Program-made: the position numbers and the translations under genes
In this document: positions 16,978 to 47,431 of the stretch, in pieces
Position numbering within the stretch: position 1 is the first letter of the stretch
How the letters are laid out: the number at the start of each line of letters is the position of its first letter
DNA from: Methylophilus sp. 5
GTDB taxonomy: Bacteria; Pseudomonadota; Gammaproteobacteria; Burkholderiales; Methylophilaceae
Length of the DNA: 64,000 nt
Direction of reading: 5' to 3'
Assembly: GCF_000515275.1 (NCBI RefSeq)
Contig: NZ_KI911560.1
Location: 868,001 to 932,000 of the forward strand
Notes under the pieces: generated by a model
What the model was told of the DNA's origin: nothing
What the model saw: only the letters and a program-made list of their open reading frames with translations
The model's database searches: none

Positions 16978-17005
16978 CTGAATGTTTTGTAGGAATGATC
17001 GGACA
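16978..17005 (-). promoter_or_regulatory. Conserved 28-bp upstream element, copy 1
   Basis: CTGAA, 5 nt, TGTAGGAATGATCGGACA on the plus strand, 121 bp before the 54-aa DUF3309-like gene. The same composite motif with identical spacing occurs at four other places, each before a small membrane-protein gene read on the minus strand. Confidence 0.7.
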
Positions 17006-17104
17006 AAAATATCTAACATCAGGCGCGCTGGCTTTCACTGAATATGTGCTTTGTTGTCTGCTTTAGCGCACCTATTGCTTGCGCTGTATCTTGCTGTGCC
17101 TGCG

Positions 17105-17257
17105 TTATCCGCCAGAAAATGTCAGTAACAATAATGCCAGCAGCAACAAGCCGACGCCACCACTTGGAAAATACCCCCACTGTGCGCTGTGAGGCCAGGC
17201 CGGCAAGGCGCCAATTAAGGCAACAACAAGGATAACAATAAGAATGGTGCTAAACAT
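17105..17257 (-). CDS. DUF3309 family small membrane protein, copy 1
   Basis: 50 aa: an N-terminal hydrophobic segment (MFSTILIVILVVALIG), the family block ALPAWPHSAQWGYFPSGG, and a second hydrophobic segment rich in Leu. This is the recognisable DUF3309 pattern, a family of unknown function common in proteobacteria. The ATG at 17257 is preferred over the one at 17260 because GGAG then lies 6 nt upstream. A slightly weaker copy of the conserved element sits 122 bp upstream. Confidence 0.85.
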   Translation of the reverse strand: MFSTILIVILVVALIGALPAWPHSAQWGYFPSGGVGLLLLALLLLTFSGG

Positions 17258-17368
17258 CATGCGCTCCAATCATTTTCCCAGGGTAGCCCGCAAGCAGCAG
17301 GCCTGAATACCAAGGCGAGTAAGGTTTCATCATGCCGTCATCGCCCTTGGCTGACCATCACACTCCGT

Positions 17369-17396
17369 CTGAAACAGCTGTAGGAATCAATCACGC
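17369..17396 (-). promoter_or_regulatory. Conserved 28-bp upstream element, copy 2 (weaker)
   Basis: CTGAA, 5 nt, TGTAGGAATCAATCACGC on the plus strand. The first 19 positions fit the consensus, but the last part (ACGC in place of GGACA) deviates. It is 122 bp upstream of the DUF3309 copy 1 start. Confidence 0.55.
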
Positions 17397-17514
17397 ACGG
17401 CAAACCAAAGCACGGAGAGCGCTAATTTATCCTACAGCAAGAGCATCCCTCGCTGATGACTAAAGTTTTTTGCGTGTTGTAGGCTAAACACACAAGAATG
17501 AATTGAGGTGAGTG

Positions 17515-17994
17515 ATGGATCCGGCAGCGTTCAAACTGAGCGTTCCCTTATGGGAAATTGTGATTCGAGGATCCATCGTTTACTGGTTCCTGTTTTTAAT
17601 TTTCAGGTCTATCTTGCGCCGCGATATAGGCAACGTTGGCGTAGGCGATTTTTTATTTGTCATGATTGTGGCCGACGCCTCTCAAAATGCCATGAGTGGC
17701 GACGCCAAATCCATTACAGATGGCTTGCTACTCATCAGCGTATTGGTGTTCTGGAATGTGTTTATAGACTGGCTCAGTTATAAAAACCAATGGGTCAGGC
17801 GCCTGATGCAAGCGCCAGCACTTGTTTTGGTGCGTGATGGCGTGCTGCAAACCCGCGCCATGCGGCGCGAGTTTATTACCAAAGAGGATATTTTGGCCAA
17901 GCTGCGCGAAGACGGTGTTGAGCATCTTTCGGCAGTGAAACGCATGCAATTAGAGTCAGATGGTCAGCTCAGTATTATTCACGACGATAAGTAA
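17515..17994 (+). CDS. DUF421/YetF-family membrane protein
   Basis: 159 aa from the ATG at 17515 (GAGG 6 nt upstream; the in-frame GTG at 17512 would be too close). Three N-terminal membrane helices are followed by the DUF421 cytoplasmic domain with RDGVLQTRAMRREFITKEDILAKLRE and VKRMQLESDGQLSII, as in YetF/YdfS of Bacillus. The family is linked to sporulation and stress in Firmicutes, but its biochemical role is unknown. It is divergent from DUF3309 copy 1, and the shared intergenic region holds copy 2 of the conserved element. Confidence 0.88.
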   Translation: MDPAAFKLSVPLWEIVIRGSIVYWFLFLIFRSILRRDIGNVGVGDFLFVMIVADASQNAMSGDAKSITDGLLLISVLVFWNVFIDWLSYKNQWVRRLMQAPALVLVRDGVLQTRAMRREFITKEDILAKLREDGVEHLSAVKRMQLESDGQLSIIHDDK

Positions 17995-18248
17995 CAATGA
18001 CTTTCTGCAAACTAACGTTTATTCTCACGTTGTTAAAATAAACAAACCTTAAAGCGCGCCGCTCAGTATCAAGTGCGATATTCAAATAATAACCAAGAAA
18101 AATTATGCTTATCACTTTTGTAATCAGTACACGTTCGATGACTTCCAAGTGGCATACGCTGATCCCCTGATGCCTGTCGGCCAGTAACTATTCGCTGGCC
18201 AATCTGGCCCCGATAGCGGTGAGACTGACTTTTGGAAAGAGGCATCAA

Positions 18249-19853
18249 ATGGATCACGTATTAAAGACAAGCTGGCGTAACAAGAAGATTGTGACGGGCA
18301 TCGCCATTCTGCTGATTATCATCACCGCTTCGATTTCTATCTTTTTATCTTTAATCATTGCGCATAACCAGGCTGTTTCAAAAGAAACCAAACATCTGCG
18401 AGAGGTGACCAACGGCGTGCTGATGCGCATGAGTACCACGCGTGCACAGTTTGCAAATGTGGTGAATCACTTTTCTGCCGTGGCCGAAAAAGACGCCTGC
18501 CTGCCCAGGCAAGTGCAAAAAATGCAGGAATTCAATGTCTCAGGCTTTTTTCTGCAAGGCGTGGCACACATCCGCGACAACCAGATTGTCTGCTCCTCGA
18601 TCTCAGAACTGCTGGATGGCATGCTGTTGGGCAAGCCTTACCGCATTGAGCCGGATGGGACCAAAGTCTGGTCCAACATTAAAATTGCCGACTGGCAAGA
18701 CAGGCATTTGGTCATCTTTGAAAAATCAGGCTGGGCCATCATGTTTGTGCCTAGTCACGCGATCGAAGCGCTTGGCAACTCTGAGGTTGCCATTGGCGTG
18801 TTTAGCATACAATCACACCGGCTATATACCGCCAAGGGTGAAATAGCGACCGACTGGCTAAAAAGATACCAAGGTAAGCAAGCGCTTACTTTCATTGATA
18901 AAGAGCGCCAGATGCTGGTGTATATTGCCCCTAACCAGTTGAATGTGACTGCGGTGGTCGCTGCCATACCACTCAAGGATATCAACGACGATATCGTCAC
19001 CTTTATCCAGATTCTTATTCCACTGTCGTTGATCGTAGGGCTGTTACTAAGCGGGCTGTTTATCTATATGCAGCGTACCCGCTACTCGACTAAATCGGCC
19101 ATTTTAAGAGCGCTGGCAAACAATGAGTTTTATCTTGAATATCAGCCTATCATCAACCTGCACAATCATACGTGTGTCGGTGCTGAGGCTTTGATCAGAT
19201 GGCGTACACCTGACAACACCTTGATCAGTCCCGACACGTTTATCCCTGCTGCCGAAGCTTCTGGCGTCATTTGTCAGATCACACAACGTGTGTTTGAACT
19301 GGTGGCTAAGGATATGCGCAATGCCTTTAATACGCACAAAGACTTTCATGTCGGCATTAATATTTCTTCGCACGACATTCGGTCAGGTGCCCTATTAACA
19401 CTGATTAAAAACCTGAAAAAAACCGCTGGTGCCGTCGGCAATCAAATTTTAATTGAAGTCACCGAGCGTGGGTTTCTTGATGATGATGAAGCGCTTACCA
19501 CCATTAAGGATATTCGTGATTGTGGCGTGCGGGTAGCGATTGATGACTTTGGCACCGGCTACTCAAGCTTGTCTTACCTGACCAAGTTTCAGCTCGATTA
19601 TCTCAAAATTGACAAAACCTTTGTTGATTCGGTCGGCACCGATGCAGTCACCAGTCATGTCGCTTTTCATATCATTGAAATGGCAAAAACCCTCCAACTT
19701 GATATGGTGGCCGAAGGGGTAGAGACGGCAGAGCAAGCAAAAATCCTGCAGGCGCGCGGGGTGAAACATGTGCAGGGCTGGCTATTCTCCAAGTCACTCA
19801 AGCGTAAAGACTTTTATGCCTATTTGGAACAACATAGCCAAGCCAAACCATAG
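18249..19853 (+). CDS. CSS-motif EAL-domain c-di-GMP phosphodiesterase
   Basis: 535 aa from the ATG at 18249 (AAAGAGG upstream; the in-frame GTG at 18219 is less likely). Two membrane helices (about 15-38 and 250-272) enclose a periplasmic CSS-motif domain with IVCSSIS near residue 117 and another Cys upstream (DACLPR). In E. coli PdeC-type proteins these cysteines form a redox-controlled disulfide. The cytoplasmic EAL domain (about 285-530) has GAEALIRW near residue 311, plus VTERGFLDD and IDDFGTGYSS, so it appears catalytic. No GGDEF domain is present. It is probably a dedicated phosphodiesterase controlled by periplasmic redox state. Confidence 0.9.
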   Translation: MDHVLKTSWRNKKIVTGIAILLIIITASISIFLSLIIAHNQAVSKETKHLREVTNGVLMRMSTTRAQFANVVNHFSAVAEKDACLPRQVQKMQEFNVSGFFLQGVAHIRDNQIVCSSISELLDGMLLGKPYRIEPDGTKVWSNIKIADWQDRHLVIFEKSGWAIMFVPSHAIEALGNSEVAIGVFSIQSHRLYTAKGEIATDWLKRYQGKQALTFIDKERQMLVYIAPNQLNVTAVVAAIPLKDINDDIVTFIQILIPLSLIVGLLLSGLFIYMQRTRYSTKSAILRALANNEFYLEYQPIINLHNHTCVGAEALIRWRTPDNTLISPDTFIPAAEASGVICQITQRVFELVAKDMRNAFNTHKDFHVGINISSHDIRSGALLTLIKNLKKTAGAVGNQILIEVTERGFLDDDEALTTIKDIRDCGVRVAIDDFGTGYSSLSYLTKFQLDYLKIDKTFVDSVGTDAVTSHVAFHIIEMAKTLQLDMVAEGVETAEQAKILQARGVKHVQGWLFSKSLKRKDFYAYLEQHSQAKP

Positions 19854-19899
19854 CCCTTAAAAACCTGCTAGCGTAAGCGAGTGCTCACAGACAAGCGTC

Positions 19900-20868
19900 T
19901 TATTTTTTAGCTTGCCCAATCTCGACCAAGGTCTGGGCAATTTGCGCTTTTAACTGCTCATTTTGCCCAGCCAATAGCAAACCCTGTTGTGCGACAGCCT
20001 CTGCCTGTGCCGTGTCTTTCTGCGCCAACAATACATTAGCAAGATTATTGTAGGCTGCGGCCGAGGTCGGGTGCACCTCAGTCATGTGCCGCAATGTGGC
20101 GGCTGCCAAAGGCAAATCATGCGCGGCATAAGCCGCATTACCCAAGCCCATCAACAATACCGGATGGTCTGGCCATTGATTGACCGCCGCCTGATAAGCT
20201 AGCTTGTTTGCCACCACTGCTGCGTTCTTTTCATAAGTGACTAATGCTTTAGCAACATCATCTGCACTTGCACTTGCCGGCAACTTGCCTGGTGGCAATG
20301 CCACAAATGCCCAATGCTCACTACGCGCCCAAGTGCGTTGAAACGCACTTAAGGACATTTCAAAACGTTGATAAGTGCCAGAGCGCAACCACAACAATTC
20401 TTTGTCCAGGTCATAGCCAACCACCACGGCATAATGCCAGGACGGCACCCATGAAAATCCTAGATTCTGCATCACCACGACCACATTGCCGGCAGCCACT
20501 TCCTGCATGACAGCATCCAGTTGTGGCGGAATTTGCACGGCCAGCGCGCCATGTCGCCTGGCTGCGGCGAGCATTTCTATCTGCAAACTGCCTTGACGGC
20601 TGGGCACATACACTTCAGGCGTCAGTTGCTCCGGGCTGACCTGAATATTGGCTGCACTCAACGCCGTCGCTAATGCCGCAGGGCCGCACTGATATTGTTG
20701 CTGTGGAAAAAAAAGCGTGTTTGTGAGCTCTGCATAGCGAGGTAGTTGTGTATTGTGCGTCGCTTCACGCACACCGGTGGCCGCACACGCACTCAGCAGG
20801 CACAAAAAAGCCAGCAGGCCGATTCGACGCAAGCTGGCTTTGATGACATCCATAGGCATAGACAGCAA
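19900..20868 (-). CDS. PA2778-family C39-like cysteine peptidase lipoprotein with TPR repeats
   Basis: About 322 aa from 20868, with in-frame ATGs slightly downstream (MPMDVIKAS, MDVIKAS) also possible. The lipobox LLSAC indicates a lipid-anchored envelope protein. The peptidase core has the nucleophile motif YQCGPAALATAL and the His region SWHYAVVVGYD, as in bacteriocin-processing C39-type folds. The C-terminal third contains TPR repeats (AAYNNLANVLLAQKDTAQAE). It forms an operon with the PA2779-family gene, 5 bp apart, downstream of DUF3309 copy 2. This pair is conserved across many Gram-negatives, but its substrate is unknown. Confidence 0.88.
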   Translation of the reverse strand: MLSMPMDVIKASLRRIGLLAFLCLLSACAATGVREATHNTQLPRYAELTNTLFFPQQQYQCGPAALATALSAANIQVSPEQLTPEVYVPSRQGSLQIEMLAAARRHGALAVQIPPQLDAVMQEVAAGNVVVVMQNLGFSWVPSWHYAVVVGYDLDKELLWLRSGTYQRFEMSLSAFQRTWARSEHWAFVALPPGKLPASASADDVAKALVTYEKNAAVVANKLAYQAAVNQWPDHPVLLMGLGNAAYAAHDLPLAAATLRHMTEVHPTSAAAYNNLANVLLAQKDTAQAEAVAQQGLLLAGQNEQLKAQIAQTLVEIGQAKK

Positions 20869-20873
20869 ATCAA

Positions 20874-21272
20874 TTAACGCACTGAACGTGTGAATGGAAA
20901 GATTTTTGTAAAGCCTAAAATATCTGTCAGCAACAATACAAAAAACACCAGCACAATGGCGCCAATAATGCCACCGCCAGCAGGGGCTTTATCAAGCTGA
21001 GAGGCTAAACTGCTTGCCTCGTCATCGCTTAATGCTGCGACGCGTGACTGCGCCTCCATTGGATCAATGCCACGCTTCACCAATTCAGATTGCACTTCAT
21101 CACGAGACAGCATCGTCACAATCTTCGCCCGGTCTTGCGCCCCCTTTGCCGAGATGGTTGATTCAGCAACTTGATCTGTGCCAATCATAGCGGCTTGAAC
21201 AGCTTGCATAGAGCCAGTGAATAGCATTGAAGCCACTAAAAAAGCGCTTAAAAAACGTTTAGCCAACATCAT
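20874..21272 (-). CDS. PA2779-family protein
   Basis: 132 aa. A signal peptide (to about SMQAVQAA) is followed by a short helical region (IVTMLSRDEVQSELVKRGIDPMEAQSRVAALS, positions about 50-82) and a C-terminal membrane helix ending in RSVR. This matches the PA2779 family, which is almost always next to a PA2778 peptidase; here the spacing is 5 bp. It may be a peptidase partner or substrate; that is inference from conserved pairing. A second ATG one codon in is equally good. The upstream DUF3309 gene is about 57 bp away and shares the same likely promoter with the conserved element. Confidence 0.85.
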   Translation of the reverse strand: MMLAKRFLSAFLVASMLFTGSMQAVQAAMIGTDQVAESTISAKGAQDRAKIVTMLSRDEVQSELVKRGIDPMEAQSRVAALSDDEASSLASQLDKAPAGGGIIGAIVLVFFVLLLTDILGFTKIFPFTRSVR

Positions 21273-21329
21273 GATGAGTTTCCTTTATATTTAAAAATTA
21301 AGTTGCGCACACACAACAGCAGAGGCCGG

Positions 21330-21485
21330 CTACAACCTGCCCGTGAGTGCAAGTATCAGTAATATCAACACAATTAAACCGAGGCCACCACTTGGGTAAT
21401 AACCCCAAGCCGCACTATAAGGCCAGGCAGGCAATGCACCGATTAAAGCTAAAATCAGAATGACCAGCAAAATGGTTCTCAACAT
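21330..21485 (-). CDS. DUF3309 family small membrane protein, copy 2
   Basis: 51 aa with MLRTILLVILILALIGALP, the AWPYSAAWGYYPSGG block and a hydrophobic C-terminus ending LALTGRL. It has a strong ribosome site (GAGGAG). It is the first gene of a likely operon with the PA2779 and PA2778 genes. Copy 3 of the conserved 28-bp element lies 126 bp upstream. Function unknown; probably two short membrane helices in a hairpin. Confidence 0.88.
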   Translation of the reverse strand: MLRTILLVILILALIGALPAWPYSAAWGYYPSGGLGLIVLILLILALTGRL

Positions 21486-21600
21486 GGCATGCTCTCCTCA
21501 AACAAATATTGCCAGTGGCACTGGCAATTCCGTGTGTTGATATTTTATGCGTGAGGCTTAATTTTGCAGACGTGTGAGGCGTGACGCCATGTCACAATGG

Positions 21601-21628
21601 CTGAATTTACTGTAGGAATTGTCTGATA
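21601..21628 (-). promoter_or_regulatory. Conserved 28-bp upstream element, copy 3
   Basis: CTGAA, 5 nt, TGTAGGAATTGTCTGATA, 126 bp before DUF3309 copy 2. It differs from the best consensus only near the 3' end. Confidence 0.68.
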
Positions 21629-21682
21629 CAGACCCTTTAAATATCAAAATAAAAGCACTTCACTCTCTATGCGCATGCCCGA

Positions 21683-21707
21683 AAAAAAGCCCACCATACG
21701 TGTGGGC
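21683..21707 (-). terminator. Rho-independent terminator of the lipoprotein gene
   Basis: On the minus strand GCCCAC, a 7-nt loop, GTGGGC and a run of seven T form a compact terminator, 54 bp after the stop of the minus-strand lipoprotein gene. Confidence 0.85.
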
Positions 21708-21760
21708 ATTGGTACCAAAGAGCAAGTGCTTGCCAGCAATGTGCTAATGCACTACTGCTA

Positions 21761-22252
21761 TTACGATTTGAAAAATTGAATCGGAATAACGCGCTTTTGG
21801 TCATCCACACACACGCCATCGCCAATCACAAACACACTGCCCAATAAGCCATCACCCTCGATATTGGCTTTAAAGTCACAATTGAGTACCGCTTTTTGAT
21901 TAGCCACCAAAAAACTTTTTCCTGAATATGCACGACGTACTCCCGCATCCACCGCTGGCGAGTCAGTCGAACCTGGCCTTACCACTACTGGCGCCGCCGC
22001 GCTAGTTGCTGTCCACTTACCAGCCAGCGCACCATAAGGCGACGTTTCAAATTCAATATCACCATCATTGCTAATATCATTAATCAGGATACTGCCTACA
22101 TACACAGTGCCGTCCAGGCCGATTAATTGCGCTTTATTTTTATAAACACCTAGCCTCACCATATTGACTGAACATGCAGACAACACGCTAACAATCACAA
22201 CAAACACACCTAAATTTCTCATTGACTTTAACCCTATGCCCAGCATGTTCAT
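21761..22252 (-). CDS. Hypothetical lipoprotein
   Basis: 163 aa from the first ATG. An internal ATG at 22222 (MRNLGVFVVIVSVLSAC) would give a more compact lipoprotein signal and may be the real start. The lipobox LSAC predicts lipid attachment. The mature part has beta-rich features (LDGTVYVGSILINDISNDGDIEFE) and three Cys, two near the end (VLNCDF, DGVCVDD), suggesting a disulfide. I do not recognise the family. It is flanked by its own terminator and a PEP-CTERM gene upstream on the same strand. Confidence 0.65.
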   Translation of the reverse strand: MNMLGIGLKSMRNLGVFVVIVSVLSACSVNMVRLGVYKNKAQLIGLDGTVYVGSILINDISNDGDIEFETSPYGALAGKWTATSAAAPVVVRPGSTDSPAVDAGVRRAYSGKSFLVANQKAVLNCDFKANIEGDGLLGSVFVIGDGVCVDDQKRVIPIQFFKS

Positions 22253-22330
22253 GACGCCATCTGATGGCTATTTCTTTATGGCCGCAACCGTTTAAAACAA
22301 CTTGCCAGTGAACCACCTCATGCTGACTCA

Positions 22331-22363
22331 AAATAAAAAGCCCACCATAAATTCGATGGGCTT
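22331..22363 (-). terminator. Rho-independent terminator of the PEP-CTERM gene
   Basis: On the minus strand AAGCCCATCG and its imperfect complement GGTGGGCTT form a stem followed by TTTTTATTT, 21 bp after the stop codon of the PEP-CTERM gene at 22384. Confidence 0.85.
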
Positions 22364-22383
22364 AAGCTCTACAAACAATCAAT

Positions 22384-22956
22384 TTATGATCGACGACGGC
22401 GACCAGCCAACCCTAATACGCCAAGGCCCGCCAGCAAGCTTGCGCTGGTGAGTGGCTCTGGCACAGGCACATAAGGTGACAACTGGGCTGAAACATCTGG
22501 CCCGTTACCCACCAACTCAAATGTGCCTTTATACAAGCCGCTGGTTGTAAACGCAGTCACGGTTCCGCCAATAAAATCCAGACCGGTCGCGCCATAAGCG
22601 CCGCTAATGGCAGAGTCTGGATCCCATTTGAAAGTAAAGACATCAAATGAGTTGAAGCTGGTAAAGTCAAAGCCGAAGACTGCTCCACTACCAAAAAACG
22701 TGGCCGTACCACCAGCAGGTGCGCTCACTGAGAATGGTGAGCCGTCGATGACGACATGGCTGCCATCCCCAGTGAGGGTACTACTAAAATCAAACACAAT
22801 TTTAGTAATATCGTAACTGGAACCGTTAAATGCAACGGTCTGGATGTTAAACCCATCCGCCCCTGGCTCTGTCACAAAAATCGAAGCCGCCGCAAATGCT
22901 TGCGTGCATCCGACTGCCATGGCCATGGCTACTGCAAACTTACTAAATTGTTTCAT
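22384..22956 (-). CDS. PEP-CTERM sorting-domain surface protein
   Basis: 190 aa. A signal peptide (cleavage near TQAFAAA) is followed by a beta-rich region with no recognised enzyme motif (NIQTVAFNGSSYDITKIVF, FDFTSFNSFDVFTFKWDP), and then VPVPEPLTS, a hydrophobic helix and RRRRS, the exosortase sorting signal. AGGAGAAGC precedes the ATG. The intergenic region upstream (22957-23268) has, on the minus strand near 23086-23102, GG-N10-GC ending TTGCT, loosely like a sigma-54 promoter. Sigma-54 control of PEP-CTERM genes is known in some bacteria, but this site is a weak match. Confidence 0.85.
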   Translation of the reverse strand: MKQFSKFAVAMAMAVGCTQAFAAASIFVTEPGADGFNIQTVAFNGSSYDITKIVFDFSSTLTGDGSHVVIDGSPFSVSAPAGGTATFFGSGAVFGFDFTSFNSFDVFTFKWDPDSAISGAYGATGLDFIGGTVTAFTTSGLYKGTFELVGNGPDVSAQLSPYVPVPEPLTSASLLAGLGVLGLAGRRRRS

Positions 22957-23268
22957 TTGCTTCTCCTCTTAAGTTTAATAATAAAAATAACTACAAAGCA
23001 CCTAACACTTTCCCATCGTTATCGATATTACATTCTTTGAGAAAAATTGCAAATTTTCTTGACATTTCAATAAAAATATATTTACAGCAATAAATACCCC
23101 CTACCCTGCAAGGCCACACCCTGCTTTTTTGGCCGCCGGAGGCCCTTATCGCACACAAAAAATAATAAGTACGCAAACAGTCCTCTCATTCCGCCATGCA
23201 ATGCATTACTATCACATACAATTTAATTTGTATAAAAGAATGTATTTTTAGGGAAAGGACTGAGGGGA
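22957..23268. other. 312-bp divergent intergenic region
   Basis: AT-rich region between the minus-strand PEP-CTERM gene and the plus-strand GGDEF-EAL gene. No ORF with a ribosome site is visible. It contains a GC-rich inverted motif (GGCCGCCGGAGGCC near 23132-23145) and the possible sigma-54-like site near 23086-23102. Confidence 0.5.
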
Positions 23269-25488: not shown

Positions 25489-25501
25489 ATGACGCTCCAG
25501 C

Positions 25502-25530
25502 AAAAAGCCCAGCAAATTGCCGGGCTTTTT
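25502..25530. terminator. Bidirectional rho-independent terminator
   Basis: AAAAAGCCC at 25502-25510 pairs with GGGCTTTTT at 25522-25530, with an inner GC pair step. Located between the convergent GGDEF-EAL and chemoreceptor genes. Confidence 0.9.
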
Positions 25531-25555
25531 ATATAAGAGCACTCACCGAGTGGGC

Positions 25556-28210: not shown

Positions 28211-28322
28211 ATCAGCGCTTTCGGTCAGCAAAATAAAACAACAATCAAGCGCTTAATTTACGCTGCTTTTGCCTACTAGCATGTGCGGATAAAATGACCT
28301 ATTCGTGTGCAATTTAAACAAT

Positions 28323-28352: not shown

Positions 28353-28422
28353 TCAATCTGCATATCGCTTGCCAAGCTGGCAACCAATTGATTTAGATCA
28401 AATTATTTGCTTGTAAAAAAGA

Positions 28423-29343: not shown

Positions 29344-29763
29344 CTAAACCTTGGTCACACGTGATTTAGCCGGCACAAACGGCATAGACAGCGGATTTGC
29401 ATAAATACGCGTCACTTTTGCGGCCGACTGTGGCTGCCCGCCAGCGGCCGTTGCAGCAGAAGAATGCATGTCATCTCGCAGTAAAGCATCCATAAAATGT
29501 CCTTTTTCAGCCGGATGCGCTGACTTGCCTGCACGCGCCGCCTGGCTGATAGCCGCATTCGCCACCAGCACATGGCCTGCAACCAGAGCGTTGCTTGTGT
29601 TCTCGGCCGTGTGCATCTCTGCCTGCGTAGTAGATCCAATAGAGACGACAGTCATAAAAAACCCCATAAACATAATGACCAGCGCTGCGGAAACGGTGCC
29701 CGCCGTAATCGCAATTAAAGATAAGGCGCTGGTAGCAGTATGCGCTGGCTTGGATTTTTTCAT
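29344..29763 (-). CDS. Short membrane protein related to the 296-aa protein at 46.05-46.94 kb
   Basis: 139 aa: one or two N-terminal hydrophobic helices (about 12-45), then a soluble tail. The block HFMDALLRDD, followed by AKVTRIYANPLSMP, corresponds to YFIDALFRKN, followed by AEVTRIFAHANALQSLP, in the larger protein at 46053-46943. It is therefore a shortened paralogue that lacks the middle membrane helices and the C-terminal helices. Copy 4 of the conserved 28-bp element lies 104 bp upstream, matching the element before the operon of the larger protein. A moderate ribosome site (AGAGG) precedes the ATG. Function unknown; likely envelope stress. Confidence 0.65.
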   Translation of the reverse strand: MKKSKPAHTATSALSLIAITAGTVSAALVIMFMGFFMTVVSIGSTTQAEMHTAENTSNALVAGHVLVANAAISQAARAGKSAHPAEKGHFMDALLRDDMHSSAATAAGGQPQSAAKVTRIYANPLSMPFVPAKSRVTKV

Positions 29764-29856
29764 GATGAATGGCCTCTTTTTTAGATATTTGGTCTAATCA
29801 ATGTTTTACAGCTGCCATGATGCCGCACCGCCCGCTCGTTCCGTATCCCACTCAGA

Positions 29857-29884
29857 CTGAATCTGTTGTAGGAATTATCGGACA
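29857..29884 (-). promoter_or_regulatory. Conserved 28-bp upstream element, copy 4 (best match)
   Basis: CTGAA, 5 nt, TGTAGGAATTATCGGACA. The core also forms an interrupted inverted repeat, TGT-GA...TC-ACA. It lies 104 bp before the 139-aa membrane-protein gene. Confidence 0.72.
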
Positions 29885-35350: not shown

Positions 35351-35374
35351 AATAAGACTAATAATGAGGGCATC

Positions 35375-36322: not shown

Positions 36323-36340
36323 GAAACCCAAGGGCTAATC

Positions 36341-37699: not shown

Positions 37700-37704
37700 T
37701 CAAG

Positions 37705-38913: not shown

Positions 38914-38923
38914 AGGAATAATC

Positions 38924-41103: not shown

Positions 41104-41105
41104 CC

Positions 41106-42023
41106 ATGAATATTGCGTGGTCAATCTCCATATTACTCATGCTACTGGCGGCCGGGCTATTATTTTACAGCGCGCAAAAAAATAGCCACCCAAGGCATAT
41201 CCAACGCCGCTTTCGTGCAGCCCTGCAGCAAGAAGGAATTCACCTGCCAGCGCAACTGGGCACCCTGGATTTTGAAGAAGCAGTGCAAGACATGCTGGGC
41301 AAGGCGTCACGCGGTGAAATAGAAGAAATGCAACGCTTGCTGGTACAAGCCGGTTGGCCCGGTGCCAAGGCAAAGTGTATGTTTCTGCTGTTTGCATGGC
41401 TACTGCCGGTGGCACTCGGTGTATTGGCGGCCATTTATGCCATCGTCAACCAGGACACCTGGCTCAATGTGCTGTTTCATTTGCTGTTTGCATTTGCGGC
41501 CAGCTTTGTACTGATTCGCCGCTTGCTGCGTTGGAAAGCGCAACACCGGCGTGATGCCATTCGCAAAGAAGTGATCCCCTTTTTGCACTTGCTCCGCATG
41601 CTGTTTGATGCAGGTCTTGCCATGGAGCATATTCTGCTGGTGATCGAGCAACAGGGGAGAGACCTGATTCCTCACCTGGCGCAAGAGCTGCAGCTGGTAA
41701 TCAAACGCATACAAACCGGGCAAGACCGGGCGGATGCGCTGGTTGAAATGGCCACCCCGTTAGAAGTGGTAGAGTTGAACGACACCATCGCCATGCTTAA
41801 ACAAGTCACGCGTTACGGCGGCAATATCCGCGACTCCCTTAGCGAATATACGACCTTGATCGAGCAACGCCAGGTGTCTGAGCTACGCGAATATGTGAGC
41901 AAGCTCTCTGCCAAAATGACGGTTGTCATGATTTTATTTTTGTTCCCGGCACTGATGATATTTTTGGCAGGGCCAGGGTTTGTGGGGCTGGCCAAGGCAC
42001 TGAAAGGGGTAAATGGTTTATGA
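41106..42023 (+). CDS. tadC: Tad inner-membrane platform protein TadC
   Basis: 305 aa from the ATG at 41106, directly after the tadB stop; an earlier in-frame codon at 41079 lies inside tadB. T2SSF domain (IPFLHLLRMLFDAGLAMEHI, LDEL-like LAQELQLVIKRIQTGQDRAD, LKQVTRYGGNIRDSLSEYTT) and C-terminal helices. It pairs with TadB to form the platform. Overlaps tadD by 4 bp. Confidence 0.93.
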   Translation: MNIAWSISILLMLLAAGLLFYSAQKNSHPRHIQRRFRAALQQEGIHLPAQLGTLDFEEAVQDMLGKASRGEIEEMQRLLVQAGWPGAKAKCMFLLFAWLLPVALGVLAAIYAIVNQDTWLNVLFHLLFAFAASFVLIRRLLRWKAQHRRDAIRKEVIPFLHLLRMLFDAGLAMEHILLVIEQQGRDLIPHLAQELQLVIKRIQTGQDRADALVEMATPLEVVELNDTIAMLKQVTRYGGNIRDSLSEYTTLIEQRQVSELREYVSKLSAKMTVVMILFLFPALMIFLAGPGFVGLAKALKGVNGL

Positions 42024-42724
42024 AAACAATCACCATCATGCTGGCATTGGCGGCCAGCTTATTGCATGGCTTACCGCATGCATTAGCCGCCGACACCGAA
42101 ACAGCACGGCCACTAAAAATCCCGGCCAATAAGGCCTGCACAGAGGTGTCTCCTGAAGAAACGACCAAGCTTGGCCTGATTCAGCAAATGTTGGCAGAAG
42201 GCAAGCCGCATGCGGCACTTGCACATCTGGAGGCAGCAAGAATCAAAAATGAACAGGCCGAGTTACTGCGCGCACATGGCTTACGCCAAACCGGACGCGC
42301 CTTGCAGGCACAGGTCATTTATGAACAGCTCGTCAATAGCTGCGTCTCCGGGCAGGCTTATCGTGGCCTGGGCTTAATTGCCAGCAACGCCGGTCATCTG
42401 CGGGAGTCGCTGCGCTATCTCAAAGCCGCCAGTACGGCGCTGCCAACCGAACATACCATCCGCAATGATCATGGTTATGTGTTGATGCAGTCGGGCGAGC
42501 CTGAGCCTGCTTTACATGAATTTTTAACCGCGGTAGAGCTGGCACCAGGTTATCGACAGGCCGCTCACAACCTTATTTTGCTGCTTTACCGGCAAGGGGA
42601 TACCGCCAGGGCAGAGGCATTTGCCAAGCAGTTCGGCATCGCCGCCGATGAAATGCAACAACTGCAAAAAATGACGCCAGAAAGCAACCGAGCCAGCCCT
42701 GAATCAGCCAGGAGCCCCTTATGA
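42020..42724 (+). CDS. tadD: TadD-like TPR protein
   Basis: 234 aa. A signal peptide (to about HALAAD; no lipobox Cys evident, unlike many TadD lipoproteins) is followed by TPR-like helices (PHAALAHLEAARIKNEQAEL, AYRGLGLIASNAGHLRESLR, RNDHGYVLMQSGEPEPALHE). TadD helps secretin assembly as a pilotin-like periplasmic factor. Its ATG overlaps the tadC stop and its stop overlaps the next start. Confidence 0.85.
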   Translation: MKTITIMLALAASLLHGLPHALAADTETARPLKIPANKACTEVSPEETTKLGLIQQMLAEGKPHAALAHLEAARIKNEQAELLRAHGLRQTGRALQAQVIYEQLVNSCVSGQAYRGLGLIASNAGHLRESLRYLKAASTALPTEHTIRNDHGYVLMQSGEPEPALHEFLTAVELAPGYRQAAHNLILLLYRQGDTARAEAFAKQFGIAADEMQQLQKMTPESNRASPESARSPL

Positions 42725-42990
42725 AACGCCTCATTATTCTCATGCTAAGTGGATTTTTAAGCATGCATTACGCCATGGCGGAAGACATGCCAAGCCCGCC
42801 ATCGACACCAGCGCGTGCGCTGTCGCCAACGCAGCAATGGCTAGAACTGCAACGCTCGAACAAAGCCGCCTCAACGCAAGCCCAGCCCATGTCGGGCGAG
42901 GTGATGGATAGAGTGCATAAACGCTACCTGAAGAGCTTTGAAAAGCCGATTCCAGAGTATTACGAGCATGAGATGCCCACCACCCGCTAA
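42721..42990 (+). CDS. DUF3613 protein of the tad operon
   Basis: 89 aa. A signal peptide (to about YAMAED) is followed by SPTQQWLELQRSNKAASTQA and the DUF3613 C-terminal block EVMDRVHKRYLKSFEKPIPE. This small exported family is found in tad operons of beta- and gammaproteobacteria; its role is unknown. It overlaps tadD by 4 bp and the next gene by about 23 bp. Confidence 0.85.
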   Translation: MKRLIILMLSGFLSMHYAMAEDMPSPPSTPARALSPTQQWLELQRSNKAASTQAQPMSGEVMDRVHKRYLKSFEKPIPEYYEHEMPTTR

Positions 42991-44596
42991 CGCGCACGCT
43001 CAGCGCGGAGCCATTGGCCTCGCTGGTGGGTTGATTCTGCTGATGGCTTTGCTGTTGACCGCCCTGGTGGTAGACAGTGGTCGCCTCTGGATGCAAAAAA
43101 AACAGCTGCAATCTATTGCCGATATGTCTGCCATTCATGCTGCGCGCCATCTTAGTTGTGACGCCAATCTGCAGAATATTATCCAAATGGCACAACTTGC
43201 TGCCGTGAATAATGGCTTTGGTGGGCAACTGGCTGATAGCCCTAATCAGGTCTTGCTAGGCCGGCTAGATACCGTGCAAGGCATACGGCAGTTCACCGCC
43301 GATGGCAGTCATCAGGCGATTTATGTCAGGGCAACCAAAGAGGTCGCAAAAAGCCTGATCGCCGGTGGGCTTATAGGTGGCACGATCACCTTGCGTGCCG
43401 AGGCGGTATCGGTGTCTGACCCGCCAATAGCTGTTTTTGGCGTGGGCAGTTTTACTAGCAGTCTCAGTAGCCAACAGTCTGTGCTACTCAATGGGCTGCT
43501 AGGTGGCATGCTGGGCGGGCCGCTTAATTTAGACGCCTTGACCTATCGCGGTATCGCAACGACCAAAGTCACCCTGCACGACATTCTGGCCGTGTCTGGC
43601 CAGGCGGGCACCCTGGAAGGCTTGCTGAATACCAATATGCAGATTGGAGATTTGCTGGAACTGATCGCCAATGCCGCCAGCCAAAATGGCGCTGCGAATT
43701 TACAAGCGATTACGGCCCTGCAAAATATTGCCGCGATTGCGGTGAAAAATGCCCCGATCAAGCTAGGCGATGTACTGGCCGTGACCACGCCCGACACCAA
43801 TGCAGCCGCCATCATCGGTCTGAATGCGTTGTCATTGATTACGACTGCAGCGATGATCGCCAACGGCACCAATGCCATTAGCCTACCATTGGCGCTCAAT
43901 GTCGCTTCTATCGCCAATGTTAACGCACAGGTCACCGTGATTGAGCCGCCACAGCTGACCGTTGGCCCTGCTGCCGGCAGTGGCAATTTGTGCACCATCG
44001 CGCGAACGGCACAAATCAGAGCGCGGGTGGGCGTGCTGGTCAATATTCCATTGCTTGCACGCATAGACCTGGCCTTGAATACCGAAGTGGCACAAGGCTC
44101 AGCCGGGTTGCGTAGCATTCAGCAAAATGATGGCGTCTCGGTGGTCGAAGTAGAAGCCAGCCCTGGCATCGCCGCGCTCACACTCACCAACAATGCCGGC
44201 AGCGGGCCAGCAAGAGTGTCTACCTTATTGAGTATTCCGGTGGCAGATATAGGCTTAAATCTGCCGTTGCAACCGCCCGGTTCACAAACGCTTGAATACT
44301 CAGTTGCACATCCGGTTGACAGTCACCTGCCACAAACACAATCGGTTGCCAGCCCGATTGGGAGTAGCCTGGAAAATGCCCTGTCCAAACAAAATGTATT
44401 GAGTGTGACCATTTTGAGTATTCTTAATCTGGGGCTAGTGAATAATGTGATTTCCACCATCGTTAGCCCGCTACTGTCAGAGATTGGCCGAGTCTTGCTA
44501 GACCCGCTGCTGGATTTACTAGGCATCCGCGTCGGCGGGATGGACGTCACCCTGGATGATTTGCAATATCGGCAGGCTAAACCGTTGGCAATATAA
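42968..44596 (+). CDS. tadG: TadG-like pilus-assembly protein
   Basis: About 542 aa from the ATG at 42968; a TTG at 42938 in the same frame is less likely. The N-terminal TadG/TadE-like anchor (QRGAIGLAGGLILLMALLLT) is followed by the conserved DSGRLWMQKKQLQSIADMSA block found in TadG proteins. The large periplasmic region is Ala/Leu/Asn-rich with repetitive beta or helix character and no von Willebrand domain visible. Probably a minor pilin or anchor. Last gene of the operon, ending 33 bp before a strong terminator. Confidence 0.85.
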   Translation: MRCPPPANAHAQRGAIGLAGGLILLMALLLTALVVDSGRLWMQKKQLQSIADMSAIHAARHLSCDANLQNIIQMAQLAAVNNGFGGQLADSPNQVLLGRLDTVQGIRQFTADGSHQAIYVRATKEVAKSLIAGGLIGGTITLRAEAVSVSDPPIAVFGVGSFTSSLSSQQSVLLNGLLGGMLGGPLNLDALTYRGIATTKVTLHDILAVSGQAGTLEGLLNTNMQIGDLLELIANAASQNGAANLQAITALQNIAAIAVKNAPIKLGDVLAVTTPDTNAAAIIGLNALSLITTAAMIANGTNAISLPLALNVASIANVNAQVTVIEPPQLTVGPAAGSGNLCTIARTAQIRARVGVLVNIPLLARIDLALNTEVAQGSAGLRSIQQNDGVSVVEVEASPGIAALTLTNNAGSGPARVSTLLSIPVADIGLNLPLQPPGSQTLEYSVAHPVDSHLPQTQSVASPIGSSLENALSKQNVLSVTILSILNLGLVNNVISTIVSPLLSEIGRVLLDPLLDLLGIRVGGMDVTLDDLQYRQAKPLAI

Positions 44597-44628
44597 AGAG
44601 AGCACCAGGCAATAGGCGAGAAAAAAGC

Positions 44629-44658
44629 AAAAGGCACCTCGGAGGAGATGCCTTTTTT
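44629..44658 (+). terminator. Terminator of the tad operon
   Basis: AAAAGGCA, a 12-nt loop and TGCCTTTTTT form a clear rho-independent terminator 33 bp after tadG. Confidence 0.92.
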
Positions 44659-45081
44659 AACATTGGATCAATATGCAAATTGTCGAATGGGTTTAGGCCT
44701 TGCTCTACCCCGTTAAAAATAAGTGACCCTACTTTTAACGGTCCTAGTGGTAAATCAAGTCCTGACCGCCATCATGATGCGAAGCCCGCTTTCTGCCTAT
44801 AGGAGTTTATCCCGAATATATGGCTAGCTTGGTGCATCATGCTCAGCGACTGCTACATAACACAGCATCCCGCCGTCGAGTGTCAGCACATGGTGACTTG
44901 CTGAAAGCCATACGTAAAATCTTGAATCCGATGATTAAGCCCATATAATAACCAACAGTCTGGGCCGGGATGATCATCGTTGAAATGAGTCCTGTTTAAT
45001 CAATGTGACACTTAAATACTATAAACTCAAAGTGACGCATCACCGCCCACTTAACAAACAACGCTAATCGCAGCTAATCAC
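44659..45081. other. Intergenic region, no convincing gene
   Basis: About 420 bp between the tad terminator and a coiled-coil protein gene. The only notable ORF (44820-44948, 42 codons, beginning MASLVHHAQRLLHN) lacks a ribosome site and resembles nothing I recognise. No repeats of the attC-like kind are seen. Confidence 0.4.
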
Positions 45082-45765
45082 ATGCACACTCAGCCTCGCT
45101 TCAAGTTAACGCTTTTATTGCTCGCCTTCTTATTCAGCACGCTTGCCTGGTGTGAAGAGCCCCTGAAGCCGGCCATCAAACTGCCTGGTATCTACAGCGT
45201 TTGGAAAACGCAAACGAAAGACATGCCAAGCATCACCATCGACGCTTTAGAGCAATGCATCATCAATGACCATGAGTTTCAGCAGCAGTATGCAAGCTTT
45301 CTGCAAGACTCGAAAAGCATTAACGATGAAATCCCGCTGGCTGAAGAAAAGGTCAATAAAAACCAGACTGCCCGGCAATCACTGGAGAGTGAAGCCTTAT
45401 TGATCAACGAGGCAAAAGAAAAGCTACATACCCGCGCAGCACTTCTTGATCAAACAAAAACAGAACTCTCTGCACTCACGGCAAAAAAAGTAGACGCAGC
45501 GACAGCAAAAAAAATAAATAACCAGGTCGATCAATTTAATAAAGAAATAAAAACCCAGAATGAGAATGCCGCCACCTTAAATGCACGCATTCAACAGTTT
45601 CAAATAGCGCAAACAAGCTACAACGAGTCGGTGACCCAATTGAAAACCAGCATTGACCAATTAAACGAGAAAACCACCAAACTCAATGAGCGCAAGCAAG
45701 ATTTTAATGCCTTAATTGCGTCGCATCGCGAACAATGCGAAGGCGAAAGAAAATTGGAAAAGTAA
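45082..45765 (+). CDS. Exported coiled-coil protein of unknown function
   Basis: 227 aa. A signal peptide (LTLLLLAFLFSTLAWCEE) is followed by a short globular region with a Cys (LEQCIIND), then a long helical coiled coil from about 85 to 220 rich in Lys, Glu, Gln and Asn (SLESEALLINEAKEKLHTRA, LNARIQQFQIAQTSYNES, DQLNEKTTKLNERKQDF). It ends with another Cys (REQCEGERK). Family not recognised. The stop is followed by the minus-strand stress cassette, with convergent orientation. Confidence 0.65.
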   Translation: MHTQPRFKLTLLLLAFLFSTLAWCEEPLKPAIKLPGIYSVWKTQTKDMPSITIDALEQCIINDHEFQQQYASFLQDSKSINDEIPLAEEKVNKNQTARQSLESEALLINEAKEKLHTRAALLDQTKTELSALTAKKVDAATAKKINNQVDQFNKEIKTQNENAATLNARIQQFQIAQTSYNESVTQLKTSIDQLNEKTTKLNERKQDFNALIASHREQCEGERKLEK

Positions 45766-45939
45766 CGCTTCAAACTAACAACCACTCTCAGCGGTCATCA
45801 ATGCCATTGGCTGTTTATTAAATCAATATGCGTTGAGTAAATACACATGCACGCATGCCCACAAAACAAAAACATCAGGCACTCGCACCGTCGTCGCAAT
45901 ACGCTGTAAACCGGTGGGTAACGTGTTCAGAGGTGAAAA

Positions 45940-46014
45940 CTAGTGCACGAATAAAGCGATCAATATAATGAGCGGGATAGGGATGCCTAGAAAATATAAT
46001 AATAACGAACGCAT
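45940..46014 (-). CDS. 24-aa hydrophobic membrane peptide
   Basis: MRSLLLYFLGIPIPLIILIA followed by LFVH: a single short membrane helix with a G-x-PIP kink. It has an excellent ribosome site (AGGAGG, 4 nt before the ATG). Small proteins of this kind occur in many proteobacteria but are often unannotated. It lies 38 bp downstream of the 296-aa gene on the same strand, as the last gene of the DUF3309 operon. Confidence 0.65.
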   Translation of the reverse strand: MRSLLLYFLGIPIPLIILIALFVH

Positions 46015-46052
46015 AATGCCTCCTGAATCAACTAAAAATGAATGGTTGAAAT

Positions 46053-46943
46053 TTATGCATCACGGCAACGACCACCCCAGGTAGCCGCCAAACTTGCCGA
46101 AAATGCACCGATAAGCAAAGAAACAAACAGCCACAAGGTCATATAAACAGACGCCTTGCGTGCCTTATCCGCGACTTCTGCGGCTTTTGTATCGGCCTCT
46201 TTTGCTGCTGACTGCATAGCCGCATAAATCTCATTAACACGTTTTCCTGCTTCTTGCTCAGCCAACCCGGTGTGTGTTGAAATTAGCTGGGCAAGATAGC
46301 GAGCGTCATCGTCAGGCAGTGACTGCAGTGCGTTTGCGTGCGCAAAAATACGCGTCACTTCGGCTGAGGGTGGCGCCTGCTCTATGGTTGCGGCCGCATG
46401 GCTATCTGTGTTTTTACGAAACAATGCATCAATAAAATAAGCTGTATCCTGTTTTTTATGGCTGGCGCGATCAGGCTTTGCACCGGGCGAGCCGTTGCTT
46501 GTCATGGCGACAGCCTGAACGGCACCGCCCACCACATGTGAGGCTGCCTGCACGCCACTATTAACGATGGCCCCAACAGTGGTGGTTAATAATGCAGCCG
46601 TCGCCAGTGTGGCGACAGACCAAGCGAGAAAGCCATGCGCCGTATCGCGAAAGTAAACTTCATCTGCAGGCGCATCAGCCCACTTAACGCGTAACCTGCC
46701 GGTTAAATATCCGCCCATGCCGGCAGCGATCAGCTGAGTAACGGTGATCCATACAATTGCAGACAATCCGAATGTAGAGGCCTCAATCCCATGGTGCGAC
46801 CATGGTGAGATGGACGACAAGCCTAAGCCGGTGCCGAGCAGAAAAAGGACCAGAGAGAGTGCACATGCAATGACAGCACCTGCCAAAATGGCGCCCCACG
46901 AGATTGCACTAATCGTTGCGTTCGATAGACTTGATTGCGCCAT
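46053..46943 (-). CDS. Multi-pass membrane protein, stress-cassette member
   Basis: 296 aa from the ATG at 46943 (AAGGAG 7 nt upstream; a GTG at 46970 is in frame but lacks a ribosome site). Helices near 15-40, 55-80, 95-125 and a C-terminal helix near 270-290. The middle soluble part contains FIDALFRKNTDSHAAATIEQ, then AEVTRIFAHANALQSLPDDD and the Glu/Ala-rich helix NEIYAAMQSAAKEADTKAAE. It shares the FIDAL...VTRI segment with the shorter protein at 29.3-29.8 kb. Second gene of the DUF3309 operon. Family name not recognised; probably an inner-membrane stress protein. Confidence 0.75.
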   Translation of the reverse strand: MAQSSLSNATISAISWGAILAGAVIACALSLVLFLLGTGLGLSSISPWSHHGIEASTFGLSAIVWITVTQLIAAGMGGYLTGRLRVKWADAPADEVYFRDTAHGFLAWSVATLATAALLTTTVGAIVNSGVQAASHVVGGAVQAVAMTSNGSPGAKPDRASHKKQDTAYFIDALFRKNTDSHAAATIEQAPPSAEVTRIFAHANALQSLPDDDARYLAQLISTHTGLAEQEAGKRVNEIYAAMQSAAKEADTKAAEVADKARKASVYMTLWLFVSLLIGAFSASLAATWGGRCRDA

Positions 46944-46976
46944 GATGGCTCTCCTTGGTTGAATCACCACGACGAA

Positions 46977-47129
46977 CTAAACCCCGCCGGTGAGTGAAAA
47001 AATAAGCAACATAATCAGCATGAAACTTAATAAACGACTAGGGTAATATCCCCATTGGCTGCTGTAAGGCCAGGTTGGCAACGTGCCAATTAAAGCAAAA
47101 ACAATCACAATAAGAGCAATCTCTACCAT
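46977..47129 (-). CDS. DUF3309 family small membrane protein, copy 3
   Basis: 50 aa: MVEIALIVIVFALIG, the block TLPTWPYSSQWGYYPS, then a Met/Leu-rich second helix ending SLTGGV. GGAG precedes the ATG. It lacks the PSGG turn of the other copies (PSRLL instead) and so is intermediate toward the divergent 54-aa protein. First gene of the operon running to the 24-aa peptide. Copy 5 of the conserved element is 99 bp upstream. Confidence 0.87.
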   Translation of the reverse strand: MVEIALIVIVFALIGTLPTWPYSSQWGYYPSRLLSFMLIMLLIFSLTGGV

Positions 47130-47431
47130 GACGTCTCCTCAATTTATTTTTAATTGTAGAAAATACGAGGTGACTCAATCATGCTAATTTGGCCGCAAAG
47201 ACTCTATACAAATTGCACTGAAATTTCTGTAGGAATTGTCGGACGAAGTCACGAACAGGCCGTGATCACGGCATGAAGATGCAATTGAAACGATGTTGAC
47301 GTTGGAGGGGAGACAACCAAACAGCACACGCTAGTGTGCGGCAACAAGCTAGTGCTAACATTGATTGTAAATCTAGAATACACTGCGGTTGCATTCTCAC
47401 TATATTCGTTCAACCGTCAGGGGCGGTCACA
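47130..47431. other. Divergent intergenic region with conserved element
   Basis: 302 bp between DUF3309 copy 3 (minus) and yccF (plus). The 28-bp element at 47218-47245 is the only structure I see; the yccF promoter should also be here. Confidence 0.5.
47218..47245 (-). promoter_or_regulatory. Conserved 28-bp upstream element, copy 5
   Basis: CTGAA, 5 nt, TGTAGGAATTGTCGGACG; one mismatch at the last base. 99 bp before DUF3309 copy 3. Confidence 0.7.

What the first reader, a model, noticed from the sequence alone, without database searches (positions are those of the whole stretch)
16978..47245. Five copies of a 28-bp upstream element mark a small-membrane-protein regulon
At 16978, 17369, 21601, 29857 and 47218 the sequence is CTGAA, exactly 5 nt, TGTAGGAAT, 2 nt, then TCGGACA or a close variant. 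Every copy has the same orientation relative to, and lies 99-126 bp upstream of, a gene for a small hydrophobic membrane protein: three DUF3309 proteins, a DUF3309-like 54-aa protein and a 139-aa membrane protein. Invariant internal spacing in otherwise unrelated intergenic DNA argues for selection. The TGT-GA...TC-ACA symmetry suggests a dimeric regulator; a promoter of an unusual sigma factor, or a conserved 5' leader RNA, are alternatives.
Basis: partly seen in the sequence, partly recalled or inferred. Interest (0 to 1): 0.75.

Follow-up and report, generated by a model that had tools for sequence, protein, structure and literature searches.

The report
Two-component stress regulon of Methylophilus
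The repeated DNA element looks like the landing site of a signal-controlled activator that switches on a set of stress-type genes, many for small membrane proteins, in methanol-eating Methylophilus bacteria, and the likely activator and its sensor can now be named and tested.

Summary
The five copies are real (four at up to 3 mismatches, none expected; the 17369 copy keeps one half only). Toward the genes the element reads TGTCCGA-N2-ATTCCTACA-N5-TTCAG. The layout recurs across Methylophilus: 22 of 29 DUF3309-family genes have the element upstream at up to 3 mismatches. It also precedes BON, DUF2171 and cytochrome c genes in this genome and CsbD, hemerythrin and glycine-zipper genes in relatives, so 'small-membrane-protein regulon' is too narrow.

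Best explanation: an activator site for one LuxR/NarL-type response regulator ('RR-A', G000:C1:378989-379618) encoded beside a CHASE3 sensor kinase. At up to 3 mismatches the element occurs in 16 of 19 Methylophilus RR-A loci and 14 of 16 from five other genera, against 0 of 20 loci of other LuxR-type regulators. A scan of 84,980 genomes put exact copies beside RR-A homologues in four other lineages. The site resembles a GacA box, but RR-A is not a GacA orthologue. RNA-leader and alternative-sigma readings are disfavoured. Binding, start site and signal are untested.

The parts
16978..17005 (-). activator element, gene orientation TGTCCGATCATTCCTACAAAACATTCAG
   Evidence: 0 mismatches
16938..16943 (-). 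predicted -10 hexamer CATGAT, 34 nt after TTCAG
16703..16867 (-). 54-aa DUF3309-like membrane protein
   Evidence: (22.3 bits, at the cut-off)
17369..17396 (-). activator element with degenerate distal half (ATTCCTACA-N5-TTCAG intact)
   Evidence: the same half-lost form upstream of the orthologues in L287 and L288
17329..17334 (-). predicted -10 hexamer CATGAT
17105..17260 (-). DUF3309 membrane protein (start at 17260 or 17257)
   Evidence: (E 7e-20)
21601..21628 (-). activator element, 2 mismatches
21561..21566 (-). predicted -10 hexamer (CAAAAT)
21330..21485 (-). 51-aa DUF3309 membrane protein; DUF6627 and C39-peptidase/TPR genes follow on the same strand (21272-19900)
   Evidence: (E 1.6e-22)
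29857..29884 (-). activator element, 0 mismatches
29817..29822 (-). predicted -10 hexamer CATCAT
29344..29763 (-). 139-aa membrane protein, no Pfam or NCBIfam match; similar proteins stand behind the element in other Methylophilus genomes
47218..47245 (-). activator element, 1 mismatch
47178..47183 (-). predicted -10 hexamer CATGAT
46977..47129 (-). 50-aa DUF3309 membrane protein; a 305-aa protein gene without Pfam match (46053-46970) follows
   Evidence: (57.6 bits)

Best explanation
Each element is the upstream activating site of a sigma-70 promoter. A dimer of RR-A, a response regulator with an N-terminal receiver and a C-terminal LuxR-type helix-turn-helix, binds the 18-bp imperfect inverted repeat TGTCCGA-N4-TCCTACA, centred at about -65 from the predicted start. 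It activates a promoter with a weak -35 and a fixed -10 (CATGAT), TTCAG being a further contact point in between. RR-A is switched by phosphorylation from the CHASE3-HisKA_3 kinase encoded divergently from its operon (YqjD-like, YqjE-like, RR-A, lone receiver; led by a DUF1328 gene in other genera), and it activates its own operon. The targets are mostly membrane and envelope stress-type genes. Shown: the conserved layout, its orientation, and its presence at RR-A loci but not at loci of other LuxR-type regulators. Inferred: binding, phosphorylation, activation rather than repression, the start site and the stress signal.
For: Fixed geometry: in 56 low-redundancy sites five element positions are invariant, TTCAG follows after 5 nt, and the -10 block has A in 53 and T in 52 of 56 at its key positions. 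RR-A locus: element at up to 3 mismatches in 16 of 19 Methylophilus loci (19 of 19 at up to 4) and 14 of 16 loci of five other genera; 0 of 10 RR-B loci and 0 of 10 other GerE loci; shuffles 0 of 57, 2 of 48, 0 of 30, 0 of 30. Pattern scan of 84,980 genomes: 32 stretches, 11 of them Methylophilus; in 4 of the other 21 an RR-A homologue lies beside the element (Andreprevotia, Blastocatellia, Ignavibacteriales, Spirochaetaceae). Element between the kinase and the RR-A operon in 9 of 12 fetched loci of other genera at up to 3 mismatches, 11 of 12 at up to 4. CHASE3 and HisKA_3 domains in the own and the Andreprevotia kinase. RR-A has receiver and GerE domains and keeps D8, D9, D54, K104. The two Methylophilus genomes without RR-A have no convincing element. 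The same layout precedes apparent Csr-type sRNAs in two Solemya symbionts.
Against: No binding or expression data. The own RR-A promoter variant (TGTCAGA-N4-TCTGACC, then TATCGG in place of TTCAG) differs from the window variant, and profile R1 did not list it at E up to 10 (which scored 150 of 317 first candidates). The relaxed consensus used for the RR-A loci was chosen after seeing one of them. At 4 mismatches controls also give hits: 2 of 10 RR-B loci, 2 of 10 other GerE loci, and 7 of 57, 3 of 48, 1 of 30 and 4 of 30 shuffles. The loci compared are related, so not independent. Both RR-A-less genomes are incomplete (94% and 82%); G018 has RR-A but no element (80% complete) and G010 has RR-A but only a weak hit. 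In 8 of 18 order-level RR-A loci no element was seen even at 4 mismatches, four of them with the kinase in view. RR-B shares most of the recognition helix. In the Blastocatellia and Spirochaetaceae cases TTCAG faces back toward the regulator gene.
Confidence: 0.75

Rival explanations
1. The element is bound by a different LuxR-type regulator of the same cell: RR-B (G000:C1:2574664-2575281), the RR-A-derived paralogue RR-C inside the second gene cluster, or L058, the most GacA-like one.
For: RR-B has nearly the same recognition helix (SVKTVSMYRTRLLEKM against SIKTVSTYRSRILEKM). RR-C is encoded among target genes (1957148-1957756) and, by my reading, occurs mainly in genomes with strong elements.
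Against: 0 of 10 RR-B loci and 0 of 10 other GerE loci carry the element at up to 3 mismatches (2 of 10 each at 4). RR-B-like proteins are present in G015 and G019, which lack convincing elements. RR-C has lost receiver residues and the helix motif (APGSVSVFRAKILKKM) and reads in two frames in G021, whose elements persist. L058 has a different helix.
Confidence: 0.13
2. The 78-bp layout is a promoter read by an alternative sigma factor, with no separate activator.
For: Blocks at invariant spacing upstream of stress-type genes.
Against: The 18-bp inverted repeat ends 44 bp upstream of the -10 block, too far for a -35. The -10 block keeps the A and T typical of sigma-70 (both in 52 of 56 sites; invariant in the 73 rows after alignment). 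The repeat recurs beside one response-regulator family in distant phyla.
Confidence: 0.06
3. The element is a conserved 5' leader RNA.
For: It lies upstream of start codons at a fairly constant distance.
Against: No consensus fold; pairing of the two halves is at the shuffled level (65.3% against 65.6%); each of the two middle pairs is unpaired in 47 of 54 sequences; no Rfam match in the window; conservation fades just after the predicted -10.
Confidence: 0.03
4. Recent duplication of a whole promoter-gene unit, without regulatory selection.
For: Three of the five genes are clear DUF3309 paralogues in one 30-kb stretch.
Against: The element also precedes unrelated genes (139-aa protein, cytochrome c, BON, DUF2171, hemerythrin) with unrelated DNA between the blocks, and recurs in other genera and phyla.
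Confidence: 0.03

Closest known systems
GacA/UvrY (Gac-Rsm/Csr) system and its GacA box TGTAAG-N6-CTTACA
   Same: 18-bp inverted repeat with the TGT..G-N6-C..ACA frame; LuxR-type response regulator with a KTV.(S/T)YR helix; the same repeat-N5-TTCAG-(-10) layout precedes apparent Csr-type sRNAs in two Solemya symbionts
   Different: In Methylophilus the genes behind it code for proteins, not Csr/Rsm sRNAs; half-site letters differ; RR-A is 34% identical to E. coli UvrY and forms its own clade; the kinase beside it shows CHASE3, HisKA_3 and HATPase domains only
RcsB and other NarL/FixJ-family regulators of envelope stress
   Same: Receiver plus GerE domains; envelope stress targets (recalled for RcsB)
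   Different: RR-A matches the RcsB model weakly (54.3 bits against a cut-off of 235); no Rcs-type phosphorelay was looked for
EcfG general stress response of alphaproteobacteria (recalled)
   Same: A similar kind of target genes (recalled)
   Different: Here a two-component activator with a sigma-70-like -10, instead of an ECF sigma factor with a partner switch

Membership tests
GacA-box (Gac/Csr) regulon | 18-bp inverted repeat TGTAAG-N6-CTTACA | tested here: inconclusive
   Frame and spacing fit (TGTAGG-N6-CGGACA on the + strand), letters only in part; box sequence from passages of PMC8523701 and two box examples in passages of PMC4353343
GacA-box (Gac/Csr) regulon | drives CsrA-binding sRNAs | tested here: not met
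   In Methylophilus 56 of 58 elements precede a plausible protein gene; Csr-type sRNAs were seen behind it only in the two Solemya symbionts. An sRNA search of the whole genome was not done
GacA-box (Gac/Csr) regulon | regulator is a GacA/UvrY orthologue | tested here: not met
   RR-A scores 179.7 bits against the NCBIfam cut-off of 280; RR-A clade 100/100, UvrY group 91/85, separate
NarL/FixJ (LuxR-HTH) response regulators | receiver plus GerE domain with phosphorylation site | tested here: met
   PF00072 E 2.3e-28, PF00196 E 3.3e-16; D8, D9, D54, K104 kept
NarL/FixJ (LuxR-HTH) response regulators | binds the element | not testable with these tools
   only genomic association:
sigma-70 promoter | -10 hexamer with conserved A(-11) and T(-7) | tested here: met
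   A 53/56 and T 52/56, both in 52 of 56
sigma-70 promoter | -35 element about 17 bp upstream | tested here: inconclusive
   Only T (50/56) and G (42/56) are conserved there; weak, as expected for an activated promoter
ECF or other alternative sigma promoter | -10 unlike sigma-70 | tested here: not met
conserved leader RNA | base pairs kept by covariation | tested here: not met
DUF3309 (PF11752) | profile score at or over 22.3 bits | tested here: met
   71.3, 79.8 and (54-aa protein) 22.3 bits; 57.6 bits for the 50-aa protein. The 139-aa protein has no match

The most novel reading that the evidence does not exclude
A CHASE3-kinase / RR-A / lone-receiver system is a general stress response of Methylophilaceae and related families that works through a GacA-type composite promoter (inverted repeat, N5, TTCAG, fixed -10). 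The same composite promoter is used from Proteobacteria to Spirochaetes and Blastocatellia by this branch of response regulators, either for Csr-type sRNAs (Gac branch) or directly for stress genes (RR-A branch).
Probability: 0.4. Interest if true: 0.7.

Novelty: new member of a known kind. Interest (0 to 1): 0.55.

Why it matters
It gives a two-component system on which I found no paper (searches named in the report) a predicted binding site, promoter geometry, target list and autoregulation, and so a direct test. It links DUF3309, DUF1328, YqjD-like, BON and CsbD genes, several of unknown function, to one signal. It also suggests that the GacA-box layout is an older and wider promoter type than the Csr sRNA genes it is known for.

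Tried and rejected
Rejected: leader RNA; alternative sigma factor; chance (63 pattern matches in 61 genomes against 6 for the reversed control pattern); duplication of one promoter-gene unit. I first read the ATRG block (11-14 nt after TTCAG, exact in 31 of 56 sites) as the -10; the alignment moved the -10 to 34 nt after TTCAG, and ATRG is now placed at the -35. RR-C was considered as regulator and made unlikely.

Limits of the counts. Profiles R1 and R2 find their own training sites by construction, and the genome searches with them scored 150 of the roughly 150-460 first candidates per genome. R1 did not list the RR-A operon promoter of the own genome; it came from a weight-matrix scan, and the relaxed consensus was set after that, the controls using the same consensus. 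Rows: 65 sites plus the 17369 copy gave 66; three probable chance hits (L006, L023, L037) and seven near-identical rows were dropped to reach 56; L007 and L022 (other genera) stayed in the 56 and were dropped from alignment A1 (54 rows); A2 leaves out three further rows of A1, all L044. One search set aside L001-L004, L006, L007, L022, L023 and L037 beforehand. The control ORFs had the element at up to 3 mismatches in 7 of 135; they come from regions partly fetched because of elements. Most DUF3309 upstream sites had also helped to define the motif.

Literature: no paper on this element or system turned up (20 of 1,145 string matches listed, none relevant by title; no hit). Seen as passages: PMC8523701, PMC4353343, PMC12826045, PMC7240160 (the last two concern other systems); all others as search listings. 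A recalled paper on GacA-controlled sRNA promoters was not found under the DOI I tried. Not tested: RpoS, CsrA and Csr sRNAs in Methylophilus, and transcription data.
Full report
OBSERVATION. The five copies exist at the stated places on the + strand. The full motif with up to 3 mismatches has 4 matches in the window and none in 100 shuffles. The 17369 copy keeps CTGAA-N5-TGTAGGAAT but has lost the other half. All genes concerned lie on the - strand, so in gene orientation the element reads TGTCCGA-N2-ATTCCTACA-N5-TTCAG, 88-115 nt before the likely start codons. The genes are three DUF3309 proteins, a 54-aa protein that just reaches the DUF3309 cut-off, and a 139-aa membrane protein without a Pfam match.

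In all five copies a second block, GCATGAT or close to it, starts exactly 33 nt after TTCAG. In 56 low-redundancy sites (all Methylophilus but two; dropped rows are listed under Tried and rejected) the profile is TGTCcGA..ATTCCTACA..AAATTCAG, a weaker ATRG at 11-14 nt, and GCATgATggagcC; the hexamer CATGAT has A in 53 and T in 52 of 56 at its second and last positions. In a set of 73 that adds RR-A-locus and BON-gene sites these two columns are invariant after alignment with a few gaps. These are the positions most conserved in sigma-70 -10 boxes (recalled). With a start about 7 nt further on, the 18-bp inverted repeat is centred near -65 and ATRG falls at the -35. Conservation fades just after the -10.

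GENUS-WIDE. The genome is a Methylophilus: its same-genus relatives have contigs of the same lengths as named Methylophilus records. With up to 3 mismatches the motif occurs in 15 of 22 genomes of the genus and 19 of 61 relatives in all; 63 matches against 6 for the reversed control pattern. A sequence-only profile (R1) has hits at E up to 0.5 in 20 of 22 genus genomes and at 9 places in the own genome at E up to 10: five in the window and four around 1.955-1.965 Mb, one of them weak. That second cluster has DUF2171, cytochrome cL-like and BON genes behind elements, with a cyclopropane synthase-family gene and a DUF2383 gene nearby. A broader profile (R2) adds 377873 (RR-A operon) and 376207 (BON/EF-hand gene); R2 was trained with both. 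Of 58 elements with enough flank, 56 have a plausible ORF start 45-200 nt downstream and 21 have one on the other side; 168 of 600 random positions do. Other genes behind the element in the genus include relatives of the 139-aa protein, glycine-zipper, CsbD, hemerythrin and CBS proteins, and, in another genus, a cold-shock protein; the CsbD and DUF2171 sites there have 5 mismatches.

There are 29 DUF3309 matches in 12 of 22 Methylophilus genomes, one of them just under the cut-off. The element stands upstream at up to 3 mismatches in 22 of 29; 3 more keep the proximal half and TTCAG with a lost distal half; 4 have nothing at up to 5 mismatches, of which one, L286, has an R1 hit (G008:C1:2308487-2308552). 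Control ORFs from partly element-rich regions: 7 of 135. The orthologues are related, so these are not independent.

THE REGULATOR. The own genome has 11 GerE matches. RR-A (378989-379618) follows YqjD-like (DUF883_C) and YqjE-like (holin-like by Pfam) genes, with a CHASE3-HisKA_3-HATPase kinase divergent and a lone receiver gene downstream (Pfam for the G011 copy). A relaxed consensus finds the element in 16 of 19 Methylophilus RR-A loci at up to 3 mismatches (19 of 19 at 4; the contig-cut locus L147 was left out) and in 14 of 16 loci of five other genera; 0 of 10 RR-B loci and 0 of 10 other GerE loci; shuffled loci 0 of 57, 2 of 48, 0 of 30 and 0 of 30. At 4 mismatches the controls give 2 of 10 and 2 of 10, and the shuffles 7, 3, 1 and 4. 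In 12 fetched loci of other genera with RR-A at 75% identity or more, a DUF1328 relative and a kinase relative flank the promoter region, and an element lies between kinase and operon in 9 at up to 3 mismatches and 11 at up to 4; a further site before a BON gene is seen in 6 of 12, only at 4 mismatches. Of two loci with 49%-identical regulators and other kinases, L226 has no hit and L225 one 4-mismatch hit that is not between regulator and kinase. At E up to 1e-62, 40 of 120 family genomes and 11 of 24 genera have a match, one genus (g15) only through 50%-identical homologues. In the order, 22 of 300 genomes match at 1e-70; of the 18 new loci 6 have the element at up to 3 mismatches, 4 more at 4, and 8 none, four of these with the kinase in view.

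UNBIASED SCAN. The exact pattern TGTNNGANNATTCCTACAN5TTCAG in 84,980 species genomes gave 32 stretches, 11 of them Methylophilus (about 2 expected with uniform bases, my estimate). In 4 of the other 21 an RR-A homologue lies beside it. In Andreprevotia, a betaproteobacterium, the element is about 190 nt upstream of an RR-A orthologue (66% identical) that is divergent from a CHASE3 kinase. In a Blastocatellia, an Ignavibacteriales and a Spirochaetaceae genome it abuts or lies within 10 nt of the stop codon of a 42-44% identical homologue. In the Blastocatellia and Spirochaetaceae cases TTCAG faces back toward the regulator gene, which I cannot explain beyond the near-palindrome. Homologues as such are common: 19 of 20 of these genomes have one at E up to 1e-30; it is the adjacency that counts. 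The other 17 stretches show no such neighbour.

LINK TO GacA. In two Solemya symbionts the same layout, with TATACT 33 nt after TTCAG (one base less than CATGAT in Methylophilus), precedes a stretch with 13 and 11 GGA motifs in 250 nt, several in predicted hairpin loops: an apparent Csr/Rsm-type sRNA that Rfam did not report; a weak CsrC match (23 bits, gathering 61) lies on the other side of the element in L111. The published GacA box is TGTAAG-N6-CTTACA (passages). RR-A forms a clade (100/100) apart from the group of E. coli UvrY and symbiont regulators (91/85) but shares the KTV.(S/T)YR helix; that those symbiont proteins are the cognate regulators is not shown. So the promoter looks like a GacA-activated one, while RR-A fails the membership test for GacA.

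PHYLETIC FIT. RR-A is present in 20 of 22 Methylophilus genomes; the two without it, G015 and G019, have no convincing element. The 13 genomes with best E below 1e-10 all have RR-A at 94% identity or more to the own one; those at 80% have weaker hits, but R1 was trained mostly on the former. Exceptions: G018 (RR-A 94%, no hit, 80% complete) and G010 (RR-A 89%, E 0.058).

VERDICT. A predicted two-component stress regulon. Binding, activation, phosphorylation and the signal are inference. I found no paper on it.

Noticed in passing
L115:1072-1350 and L117:894-1170: Solemya symbionts: element followed by an apparent Csr/Rsm-type sRNA (AGGA in several predicted hairpin loops; a terminator-like hairpin with T run further on in L115) that Rfam did not report.
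   Followed up: partly
G000:C1:1957148-1957756 (L105:11101-11757): RR-C, a long-branch paralogue of RR-A with degenerate receiver and helix, encoded among target genes; read in two frames in G021.
   Followed up: partly
L106:1737-2273: A cytochrome cL-like protein (TIGR03872 98.7 bits, below its cut-off of 147.8) stands behind an element in the second stress-type cluster of a methylotroph.
   Followed up: partly
window 19900-21272: A DUF6627 protein and a C39-peptidase/TPR protein directly follow the 51-aa DUF3309 gene on the same strand and may share its promoter.
   Followed up: no
window 17512-17994: A YetF-type (DUF421) protein gene runs divergently from the 17369 element.
   Followed up: no
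window 22384-22956: A PEP-CTERM protein gene.
   Followed up: no
L129:6498-6525 and L134:2211-2238: In two Candidatus Thiodiazotropha genomes an exact element precedes a similar small ORF (61 and 68 aa) of unknown function.
   Followed up: no
L055, L287, L288: One DUF3309 orthologue group keeps only the proximal half site and TTCAG; the distal half may be dispensable there.
   Followed up: partly
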